This document shows, piece by piece, positions 32,956 through 57,796 of a DNA stretch of 64,000 nt; the stretch's first letter is position 1, and each line of letters starts with the position of its first letter. Location of the stretch: the NCBI RefSeq assembly GCF_004006295.1, contig NZ_CP026095.1:3086001-3150000 (forward strand). Direction: 5' to 3'. The notes under the pieces were generated by a model. The model was given only the letters and a program-made list of their open reading frames with translations. It was not told the DNA's origin and ran no database searches. The DNA comes from Peribacillus asahii (GTDB lineage: Bacteria; Bacillota; Bacilli; Bacillales; DSM-1321). The position numbers and the translations under genes were made by a program.

Positions 32956-32984
32956 TAATACTTTAACAGATTTTTTCCCTCACA

Positions 32985-33193
32985 CTTAACGGGCAGTAAG
33001 ACCCCCACCTCAAGCGTATGGAAAACAAACAAGATAGGCGGGGGACGACTGCCCTCATCTAGCTACGACTGCTAGCCCCTCGAGGTCATAAGATGAAATA
33101 CTTGTCTAAACTGAACAGTCGCCTCGCTTTTGTAGTAAAGATTCGATTAGTCAACTAACCATCAATGACAATGAAGGAACCCCCTCACTTTAT
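32985..33193 (+). repeat. Palindrome-ended repeat, shortened copy (C)
   Basis: Starts CTTAACGGGCAGTAAGACCC and ends CACTTTAT like the full copies. The left hairpin is kept. Two internal blocks are missing (after GGTCATAAG and after GTAGTAAAG) and the right hairpin is degenerate (CCATCAATG...). It lies between yodS and the TPP riboswitch and separates the two divergent units. Confidence 0.85.
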
Positions 33194-33327
33194 TAAACAA
33201 TATTATTGATAACGTAATTTGGGCTCACACATCTTTCAGAAAAGATGCATAGAGAAAAACTTAATTTATTAAAAGAAGAATACTCTATATCAAGAAATAT
33301 GCTAAAATAATAGATAGAATGTAAATA

Positions 33328-33418
33328 GTAGGGGAGCTTGCACATGTGGGCTGAGAGTAAGCGAAATGTAGCTTTAACCCTTTAACCTGATTTGGATAAT
33401 GCCAACGTAGGGAATCGA
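33328..33418 (+). promoter_or_regulatory. TPP (THI-box) riboswitch
   Basis: Conserved TPP aptamer elements in order: GGGGAGC, GGCTGAGAGTAAGCG, ACCCTTTAACCTGAT, GGATAATGCCAACGTAGGGA. It is followed by a terminator and the thi genes, so thiamine pyrophosphate turns the operon off by premature termination. Confidence 0.96.
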
Positions 33419-33440
33419 ATGTCATAAATGGTAGTCTATG

Positions 33441-40504: not shown

Positions 40505-40882
40505 ATAAAGTGAAACTTCCATCAGTGGGGGTTTTTCTTCATCCCCCACTGATGGTTAGTCACGTTCTACGGTCACTAAGATTTCCGCTTCGCTTCAATC
40601 AAGTGACCGTACGAACCTGATTGGTGAAAGCTTACCTTTGAAAATCGCAAAGGTAAGTTTCACTGTATCTCACCAATCGGACCTTTACTACAAAAGCGAG
40701 GCGACTGTTCAGCCCCGACAAGCATAAGATGAAATGCGGTGTGGCGCAGTTTGCCACAGAGCATTACAGCTTATGACCTTGAGGGGCTAGGAGCCGCAAC
40801 TAGATGAGGGCAGTTGTCCCCCACCTATCTATCTTCCTTGTTCACTCTGAATCTTGAGGTGGGGGTCTTACTGCCCGTTAAG
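40505..40882 (-). repeat. Palindrome-ended repeat, full copy (B), inverted relative to copy A
   Basis: 378 bases, ends ATAAAGTGAAACTTCCATC (40505 side) and GGTCTTACTGCCCGTTAAG (40882 side). Outside the left-hairpin loop it differs from copy A at only about seven positions. Both end hairpins are intact (CCATCAGTGGGGG/CCCCCACTGATGG; GGGCAGT...CCCCCACCT/AGGTGGGGG...ACTGCCC). Several internal stems are also kept. No ORF. It lies between the ABC operon terminator and yodT. Confidence 0.95.
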
Positions 40883-40897
40883 AGTGGGATAAAACGA

Positions 40898-56667: not shown

Positions 56668-57041
56668 CTTAACGGGCAGTAAGACCCCCACCTCAAGCTT
56701 ATGAGAAAACAAAGAAGATAGGTGGGGGACAACTGCCCTCATCTAGTTGCGGCTCCTAGCCCCTCGAGGTCATAAGCTGTCATGCTCTGTGGCAAACTGC
56801 GCCACGCCGCATTTCATCTTATGCTTGTCGGGGCTGAACAGTCGCCTCACTTTTGTAGTAAAGGTCCGATTGGTGAGATATAGTGAAACTTACCTTTGCG
56901 ATTTTCAAAGGTAAGCTTTCACCAATCAGGTTCGTACGGTCACTTGATTGAAGCGAAGCGGAGATCTTAGTGACCGTAGAACGTGACTAACCATCAGTGG
57001 GGGATAAAGAAAAACCCCCACTGATGGAAGTTTCACTTTAT
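56668..57041 (+). repeat. Palindrome-ended repeat, full copy (A)
   Basis: 374 bases from CTTAACGGGCAGTAAG to AGTTTCACTTTAT. Left hairpin: GGGCAGT..CCCCCACCT with AGGTGGGGG..ACTGCCC (56674-56738). Internal stems include GGCAAACTGCGCC, CTTACCTTTG...CAAAGGTAAG nested in GATTGGTGA...TCACCAATC, and CGGTCACT...AGTGACCG. Right hairpin: CCATCAGTGGGGG/CCCCCACTGATGG (56991-57027). No ORF of interest. The right end abuts the tatC stop codon. Confidence 0.95.
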
Positions 57042-57796
57042 TGCATATCTTCTCCCTGACTATATTCTGCTTCAGCCGCTGCTTCCCTTTTTTGACGCCG
57101 CTTAAAGACAATTTTAGACAGCGATATACTAATTTCATATAGAAGTAACAACGGTACAATCACAACGAAGTCTGACATAAAATCTGGAGGGGTTATACAA
57201 ACAGCAATGACTACAAGAACAAAATAAGCATATTTTCTAATTTTATGAAGCACATAAGGATTTAAAATTCCGATAGAGGTTAAAAACATAATGACAACAG
57301 GGAGCTCGAATAATACAGCAAAAGGAATGGTCATGTGAAAAACAAACTTAAAATACTTCTCAGCCGTGAAGTTCGTTAAAAACATGTCTCCACCTAAATC
57401 AAGTAAGAACTGATAAATCATCGGAAAAATAATAAAGTATCCGAAGGCAAGTCCCGCTACAAACAATATAAATAAAGCTGGTATGTACGCTAATGTTGCC
57501 TTTATTTCATGCGGTCGTAAAGCTGGTTTAACAAAGAGCCATATTTGCAATGCTAGAATTGGAATCGTCGCTGCTACAGCAATCACTGATGCGAGCATGA
57601 AGTAAATCCAAATAATCTCACTCGGTCCTAACACCATTAAGGTAACATCTAACCCCTTCACAAACCACTTATAAACATCTTCAACAAATATAAAGCCAAT
57701 AATAAAAAAAAGAAAAAAACTAACGACAACAATAATTAATCGTTTCCGCAACTCATCAAGATGTTCAATGACATTGAGTTCTTTATCTTCCAACAT
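57038..57796 (-). CDS. tatC: Twin-arginine translocase subunit TatC
   Basis: A 252-residue six-helix protein, the signal-peptide receptor of the Tat export system. N-terminal HLDELRKRLIIVVVSFF and the conserved FxxxP/ELP region (AVLFELPVVIMFLTSIGI) are present. The last codons and the stop TAA (57038-57040) lie inside the terminal bases of repeat copy A, so that insertion may have set the C-terminus. Pairs with tatA upstream. Confidence 0.94.
   Translation of the reverse strand: MLEDKELNVIEHLDELRKRLIIVVVSFFLFFIIGFIFVEDVYKWFVKGLDVTLMVLGPSEIIWIYFMLASVIAVAATIPILALQIWLFVKPALRPHEIKATLAYIPALFILFVAGLAFGYFIIFPMIYQFLLDLGGDMFLTNFTAEKYFKFVFHMTIPFAVLFELPVVIMFLTSIGILNPYVLHKIRKYAYFVLVVIAVCITPPDFMSDFVVIVPLLLLYEISISLSKIVFKRRQKREAAAEAEYSQGEDMQ

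What the first reader, a model, noticed from the sequence alone, without database searches (positions are those of the whole stretch)
56668..57041. Palindrome-ended 375-bp repeat family without ORF (full copies at 56.7 and 40.5 kb)
Two copies in opposite orientation, 16 kb apart, agree except for about seven bases and the left-hairpin loop. Each has a large hairpin at both ends and several internal stems, and no coding frame. Limits are sharp: CTTAAC at one end, CTTTAT at the other. Such conservation without coding suggests a MITE-like element moved by a transposase elsewhere, a structured RNA, or both. The subterminal hairpins recall single-strand (IS200/IS605-type) transposition. I do not recognise the family.
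Basis: partly seen in the sequence, partly recalled or inferred. Interest (0 to 1): 0.75.

Follow-up and report, generated by a model that had tools for sequence, protein, structure and literature searches.

The report
Transposase-less mobile repeat of Bacillales
A short stretch of DNA without genes has copied itself dozens of times into genomes of Bacillus relatives, apparently by slipping as a folded single strand into DNA that is being replicated, and in this bacterium it has grown by taking in other repeats.

Summary
Two near-identical copies lie at 56668-57041 (+) and 40505-40893 (-), a decayed third at 32974-33193 (+); the host, a Peribacillus close to P. asahii, carries about 40 sites. 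The true left end is TTTATCCCAC(A/T)CTTAAC, lost in the 56.7-kb copy. The 375-bp form is a composite: a ~155-bp core (hairpins A and D) plus an independent repeat (B) and a two-hairpin block (C); several module combinations coexist. Against P. asahii MA001, 16 of 27 sites lack the element, with one TTTAT or a near variant in its place: it moves and inserts at TTTAT without a longer duplication. The core occurs in 78 of 299 genomes of the order (44 genera, 30 families), its stems covary, and its top strand lies on the lagging-strand template at 110 of 147 sites in six genomes, also between genes that are not co-directional. This fits IS200/IS605-like single-strand transposition of a non-autonomous element, PATE-like and TTTAT-specific like bcr1 of the Bacillus cereus group. 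No partner transposase was found; order-wide, copies do not track IS200 or REP-type Y1 genes. Best read as a new, composite, order-wide variant of a known kind.

The parts
56668..57041 (+). Copy 1, composite A-B-C-D form; its left terminus TTTATCCCAC is missing
56674..56738 (+). Module A, left hairpin (GGGCAGT...ACTGCCC); putative guide TTAAC just 5' of it (56669-56673)
56739..56857 (+). Module B, a repeat that also stands alone in other Bacillales genomes; absent from core and A-C-D copies
56858..56874 (+). Core linker GTAAAGGTCCGATTGGT, conserved in 25 best-scoring copies from 14 families
56875..56986 (+). Module C, two further hairpins; absent from core and A-B-D copies
56987..57041 (+). 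Module D: putative guide CTAAC (56987-56991), right hairpin, tail GAAGTTTCAC and terminal TTTAT (57037-57041)
40505..40893 (-). Copy 2, complete A-B-C-D form bounded by TTTAT at both ends; site empty in P. asahii MA001
32974..33193 (+). Copy 3, decayed and internally shortened, upstream of a TPP riboswitch (33320-33430)
57038..57796 (-). tatC; its TAA stop codon (57038-57040) lies inside the element's terminal TTTAT, read as ATAAA on the coding strand

Best explanation
It is a non-autonomous mobile DNA element that transposes as folded single-stranded DNA in the manner of the IS200/IS605 family. Shown: it inserts at TTTAT or a near variant, with no longer duplication; both ends carry covarying subterminal hairpins, preceded in most copies by (T/C)TAAC; copies can chain head to tail sharing one TTTAT; the strand that bears TTTAT lies mostly on the lagging-strand template. 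Inferred: a Y1 (HUH) transposase supplied in trans binds both hairpins, uses the TAAC guides to choose TTTAT, excises the top strand as a single-stranded circle and inserts it 3' of another TTTAT exposed at a replication fork. The 375-bp form arose when the ~155-bp core took up a second repeat (B) and a hairpin block (C), and this form then spread as a unit. Later recombination or deletion between copies changes the modules in place.
For: Mobility and target: the joined flanks of 27 G000 sites were searched in P. asahii MA001 (G021); 16 lack the element, 9 are filled (some by partial copies), 2 undecided. Eight of the 16 read TTTAT there, eight a near variant. At L045 and L046, whose targets are not TTTAT, the left flank keeps a host-like pentamer while the right end is TTTAT. 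Tandem copies share one TTTAT. Structure: right stem 95.3% of cells paired, 5 of 13 pairs changed on both sides; left stems 91.8%, 7 of 15. Strand: top strand on the lagging template 37:16, 16:0, 10:1, 7:2, 14:4 and 26:14 in six genomes, 110:37 in all, p 1.3e-9, and p 5e-4 against a 61% baseline. Where the flanking genes are not co-directional: 21:3. Distribution: 78 of 299 genomes. An IS605 whose left flank reads TTTAT (by eye, two copies) occurs in G246 and G269, which also carry the element. Within the genus, 7 of 7 genomes shown to carry the core have a Y1 match against 5 of 18 others, p 0.0016.
Against: None of the 30 Y1 loci held has convincing core ends within about 1.5 kb; the one hit was weak (L163, E 0.04). 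Across the order, element presence does not track RAYT (p 0.43), IS200 (p 0.10) or either (p 0.56); 10 of 47 element-rich genomes have neither at E<=1e-8. Several Y1 matches in the genus are fragments. The right-hand CTAAC is replaced by CTTTC in four copies of G246 and G269. G000 alone is only weakly biased (26:14, p 0.08). Where transcription and replication disagree the count is 7:1, p 0.07. One covariation measure of the left stems was reached by 52 of 500 shuffles. Single-stranded circles cannot be seen in genomes.
Confidence: 0.72

Rival explanations
1. A single-strand element as above, but moved by an enzyme other than the IS200 and REP-type Y1 transposases tested, for example another HUH enzyme or a host enzyme that acts on single-stranded DNA.
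For: No order-wide association with either Y1 family; 10 of 47 element-rich genomes lack both at E<=1e-8. No copy that I examined encloses a transposase gene.
Against: Three of those ten genomes (G005, G031, G045) hold Y1 fragments, so the enzyme may have been lost after spreading copies; the other seven were not searched with the broader Y1 family. A TTTAT-flanked IS605 occurs in G246 and G269.
Confidence: 0.2
2. A classical MITE moved by a double-strand (DDE) transposase that duplicates a 5-bp TTTAT target.
For: TTTAT stands on both sides of most copies, which a fixed 5-bp duplication would also give.
Against: The two ends are not inverted repeats of each other. At two non-TTTAT targets the right end is still TTTAT (L045, L046), though later mutation is possible. 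DDE insertion gives no reason for the lagging-strand bias.
Confidence: 0.1
3. A structured RNA or transcript-end element kept for function at the RNA level, whose spread is secondary.
For: Very stable fold, covarying stems, strong conservation of linker and right end between families. In two B. cereus strains 51% and 40% of bcr copies are part of an mRNA (PMC3446304, passages).
Against: Sites are often unshared between close relatives (16 of 27). All four gene contexts occur. G-T to A-C counts 23:17 give no clear strand. No Rfam match. Promoter-like sites nearby at chance level.
Confidence: 0.1
4. An RNA-mediated element, reverse-transcribed into lagging-strand gaps like some group II introns (analogy recalled, from no call).
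For: Lagging-strand bias and strong RNA fold.
Against: No intron-like match in Rfam; the ends and the single TTTAT fit IS605-type anatomy without it.
Confidence: 0.03

Closest known systems
bcr1 (group A BCR, Bacillus cereus group repeats)
   Same: Short intergenic mobile repeat with conserved stem-loops (147 or 167 bp in PMC2267715, passages), a TTTAT motif linked to mobility and on average 39 copies per strain (PMC6542083, passages).
   Different: BCRs are described as specific to the B. cereus group (PMC6542083). The present core spans 30 families, and the composites with B and C are not described in the passages read. Sequence relationship untested: no bcr1 sequence was at hand.
PATE (palindrome-associated transposable elements, Haloquadratum)
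   Same: No terminal inverted repeats, near-terminal palindromes, short targeting oligonucleotide, repeat-mediated core deletions, frequent targets of other small repeats (PMC3119063, passages).
   Different: PATE palindromes resemble those of local IS605 transposons; here no parent transposon was found. Different domain of life.
IS200/IS605 insertion sequences
   Same: Subterminal hairpins, guide bases just 5' of each hairpin, fixed target, lagging-strand template preference (PMC6006769, passages).
   Different: No tnpA or tnpB; both ends abut the same TTTAT.
REP/REPIN elements with RAYT
   Same: Palindromic and non-coding, thought to be mobilised in trans.
   Different: REPs are 21-65 nt, typically with GTAG-type guides (PMC6006769, passages); here a ~155-bp two-hairpin unit. 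The RAYT-like gene of this genome is flanked by another palindrome, GTCACTGTGAC.
BOX elements (Streptococcus pneumoniae)
   Same: Modular: fixed end modules with optional middle modules (PMC3049150, passages).
   Different: BOX has terminal inverted repeats and target duplications; 60.8% lie on the leading strand, mirroring the coding bias (same passages).

Membership tests
IS200/IS605-type non-autonomous element (PATE-like) | Subterminal hairpins at both ends, no terminal inverted repeats | tested here: met
IS200/IS605-type non-autonomous element (PATE-like) | Fixed short target, inserted without a longer duplication | tested here: met
   16 of 27 sites lack the element in G021, with TTTAT (8) or a near variant (8) in its place
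IS200/IS605-type non-autonomous element (PATE-like) | Lagging-strand template preference | tested here: met
   110:37 over six genomes; 21:3 where flanking genes are not co-directional
IS200/IS605-type non-autonomous element (PATE-like) | Guide bases 5' of each hairpin that pair with the cleavage site | tested here: inconclusive
   (T/C)TAAC at both ends of most copies, but CTTTC at the right end of four copies
IS200/IS605-type non-autonomous element (PATE-like) | Ends shared with a TnpA-coding parent | tested here: not met
   no convincing core ends in the 30 Y1 loci held; Y1 genes not fetched were not examined
bcr1 / group A BCR | TTTAT-associated mobile repeat in tens of copies | tested here: met
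   description from PMC6542083
bcr1 / group A BCR | Sequence homology to the bcr1 consensus | not tested
   defining papers not held; two accession numbers for one plasmid not found
bcr1 / group A BCR | Restriction to the B. cereus group | tested here: not met
   nearest named relative is Peribacillus asahii; core in 44 genera of 30 families
Classical MITE | Terminal inverted repeats | tested here: not met
   ends TTTATCCCAC... and ...TTTCACTTTAT are not inverted repeats
REP/REPIN-RAYT | Co-occurrence with a RAYT | tested here: not met
   48 of 78 element genomes against 124 of 221 others, p 0.43
Known structured RNA | Rfam match | tested here: not met
   only a TPP riboswitch in the window at gathering thresholds

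The most novel reading that the evidence does not exclude
One noncoding ~155-bp element has spread through at least 30 families of the order by single-strand insertion at the replication fork without an obligate IS200- or REP-type partner; it is driven by an unrecognised enzyme and builds larger composite elements by nesting with other repeats. bcr1 would then be only its Bacillus cereus branch.
Probability: 0.2. Interest if true: 0.85.

Novelty: new variant of a known kind. Interest (0 to 1): 0.6.

Why it matters
BCR repeats have been treated as private to the B. cereus group, with an unexplained TTTAT-linked mobility. An order-wide element of similar habit, with empty sites, covarying hairpins and a replication-strand bias, turns the question of what moves such orphan repeats into a testable one: does a TTTAT-type Y1 transposase excise it, and only from the lagging strand? 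The 375-bp composites built from two repeat families also show how larger structured noncoding elements can arise and spread as one unit.

Tried and rejected
Structured RNA as sole explanation: Rfam negative, sites often unshared, wobble counts without clear strand (the first count, 34 G-T against 44 A-C, included badly aligned pairs). RAYT or IS200 as obligate partner: an association inside the genus (9 of 9 against 3 of 16; 7 of 7 against 5 of 18 when only genomes shown to carry the core are counted, because G002 showed only module B and G023 was not shown to carry the core) disappears order-wide. Ends next to Y1 genes: nothing convincing. Phage or viral vehicle: no match in phages or viral contigs (one exact 27-base pattern only). 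Plasmid vehicle: one full-length match, on a Pseudalkalibacillus plasmid, and partial matches. bcr1 sequence: papers not held. Other stem-loop families such as Bhal-1 of B. halodurans (PMC2267715, passages) were not compared. Five of the element's own sequence strings: 0 papers, open PMC library only.

Limits of the counts: one search scored 40 of 106 first-look candidates and missed at least one core (1867359). One search used the listed matches: 55 of 63 in G104, 16 of 32 in G192, 17 of 32 in G263, 18 of 34 in G010, 18 of 20 in G091 (one row typed twice), with same-strand copies within 2 kb merged. Six further genomes were not tested there; G000 was counted, where its 40 sites include truncated copies. 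Six G263 copies share both flanks and were left out of the final counts. Replichores came from sampled skew windows, genes from a simple ORF caller. Covariation used 47 of the 71 right-end segments and 49 picked from the 118 rows, many of which were duplicates or chance. 20 of the 27 sites were fetched and aligned, the rest judged from hit spacing; at L010 and L017 the flanks differ by further indels, so loss by deletion is not excluded there.

Full report
1. What is there. A third, decayed copy lies at 32974-33193. The window is part of a 4.89-Mb genome in two contigs. Its TatC is 100% identical to that of Peribacillus asahii MA001, whose contig has the length of G021:C12; G010 matches P. loiseleuriae FJAT-27997 and G009 strain FJAT-29882 in the same way. 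The element gives 63 matching pieces in the own genome, which I merged to 40 sites; at least one more core was seen later.

2. True ends and modules. Aligned copies run from TTTATCCCAC(A/T)CTTAAC to GAAGTTTCACTTTAT. Four segments combine: A (left hairpin), B, C and D (right hairpin). Core copies are A, a linker GTAAAGGTCCGATTGGTTCAACTAAC and D, about 155 bp; A-C-D, A-B-D and A-B-C-D copies also occur. B stands alone as an independent repeat at loci of G002, G003 and G028, so the 375-bp form is a composite. In G263 six copies show a core set inside a larger repeat, with both flanks shared.

3. It moves. Joined 140-base flanks of 27 G000 sites were searched in G021. Sixteen sites lack the element there: L004 to L012, L016, L017, L018, L043, L045, L046 and L048. 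Nine are filled, some by partial copies, and two are undecided. Twenty were aligned base by base. The copy at 40505-40893 (L005) is among the empty ones. At the 16 sites G021 reads TTTAT eight times and a near variant eight times. At L010 and L017 the flanks also differ by small indels, so loss by deletion is possible there. At L045 and L046, where the target is not TTTAT, the left flank keeps a host-like pentamer and the right end is TTTAT; a 5-bp duplication would make both alike, though later mutation cannot be excluded for two cases. In the 27 G000 rows TTTAT was printed at 20 left and 23 right ends (one left and one right end were misparsed). Elsewhere: G192 16 of 17 left and 15 of 17 right, G104 31 of 32 and 31 of 32, G263 7 of 17 and 14 of 17, where six of the 17 are the shared-flank copies with left TTTTC. 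Tandem copies share one TTTAT in G014, G091 and G287.

4. Modules change in place. At the sites of L002 and L003, G000 has A-B-C-D while G021 has A-B-D. The tatC-side site of copy 1 is occupied in G021 (L055) by a partial element. Recombination or deletion in place is inferred from this, not shown.

5. Structure is kept by paired changes. Right stem, 46 distinct sequences: 95.3% of cells paired, 5 of 13 pairs with changes on both sides, covariation score reached by 0 of 500 shuffles. Left stems, 49 sequences: 91.8%, 7 of 15, 0 of 500, but the number of pair types was reached by 52 of 500. Rows are related and not independent. After dropping badly aligned pairs, 23 G-T stand against 17 A-C mismatches: no clear sign of which strand folds.

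6. Distribution. A covariance model of the core matched 99 of 299 genomes of the order at E<=1e-4. Because palindromes give weak opposite-strand matches, I count only E<=1e-12: 78 genomes, 44 genera, 30 families (labels are the tool's). Linker and right end are nearly invariant in 25 best-scoring copies, a selected set. An exact right-end pattern alone matched 8 of 299.

7. Strand bias. In the own genome dnaA lies at 1.2 kb of contig 1, and GC skew is positive to 1.76 Mb and negative from 2.77 Mb; 26 of 40 copies have their top strand on the lagging-strand template (p 0.08). Elsewhere: G104 37:16, G192 16:0, G263 16:1, G091 7:2, G010 14:4. Six G263 copies with shared flanks were removed (10:1), giving 110:37, p 1.3e-9. 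Pneumococcal BOX and RUP repeats lie at about 61% on the leading strand, mirroring the coding bias (PMC3049150, passages); 110 of 147 differs from 61% with p 5e-4. Among 60 copies with flanking genes examined, 49:11 follow replication; where the neighbours are not co-directional the count is 21:3, and where transcription and replication disagree 7:1, p 0.07. Replication therefore explains the orientation better than transcription does.

8. Mechanism. Subterminal hairpins, a fixed AT-rich target, no longer duplication, a guide-like TAAC 5' of both hairpins in most copies, and lagging-strand preference are the signs of IS200/IS605 single-strand transposition as described in PMC6006769 (passages). 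PATEs in Haloquadratum are the closest analogue I found (PMC3119063, passages). TTTAT is also the left-end motif of solo-tnpB elements in Sulfolobus islandicus (PMC10640517, passages).

9. The missing enzyme. The own genome has an IS200/IS605 transposase (L041) and a REP-type one (L042) by NCBIfam (L042 scores 70.9 bits, under the 80-bit cut-off). Among 30 Y1 loci held, only L163 gave a core match, at E 0.04. L042 is flanked by a different palindrome, GTCACTGTGAC. In the genus, 9 of 9 genomes with 17 or more element matches have a Y1 match against 3 of 16 others; since G002 showed only module B and G023 was not shown to carry the core, the safer count is 7 of 7 against 5 of 18, p 0.0016. Some Y1 matches are fragments and relatedness is not corrected. 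Order-wide there is no association, and 10 of 47 element-rich genomes lack both families. An IS605 whose left flank reads TTTAT in G246 and G269 is a candidate partner (judged by eye); its right end is not held.

10. What is known. bcr1-bcr18 of the B. cereus group are mobile or structured repeats linked to TTTAT, stated in 2019 not to have been found in other species (PMC6542083, passages). B. cytotoxicus has 57-63 bcr1 copies (PMC8725734, passages). The defining papers are not held, so homology to bcr1 is untested. Literature searches; among the rows listed I saw no paper on this element outside the BCR work, within open PMC papers only.

Noticed in passing
window 57036-57041: The tatC stop codon TAA lies within the element's terminal TTTAT (ATAAA on the coding strand), so insertion at TTTAT can sit exactly at a gene end without changing the protein.
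   Followed up: no
L042 (G000:C1:4467766-4471098): A REP-type Y1 transposase gene with the palindrome GTCACTGTGAC on both sides (three copies seen); possibly this genome's own REP family.
   Followed up: partly
L039, L040, L088, L089: Module B is itself a stand-alone repeat in several Bacillales genomes (TCTAGCTCCAGCGCCTAGCCCCTCGAGGTCATAAGC...GCTTATGCTTGTCGGGGCTGAACAAGGCGC). Not identified.
   Followed up: partly
L317, L318, L319, L321, L322, L323 (G263): Six copies of the core lie inside a larger repeat with shared flanks on both sides, whose ends resemble module B by eye; a second kind of composite.
   Followed up: partly
L237 (Klebsiella grimontii plasmid pNY3A, CP079755.1, 221561-221652): A partial match to this Bacillales core in a record labelled Klebsiella; possible mis-assembly or contamination.
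   Followed up: no
L087, L034, L082, L100-L102: Other hairpin-rich blocks than B and C occupy the middle of the core in G003, G010 and G031.
   Followed up: no
window 33320-33430: TPP riboswitch downstream of the decayed third copy.
   Followed up: no
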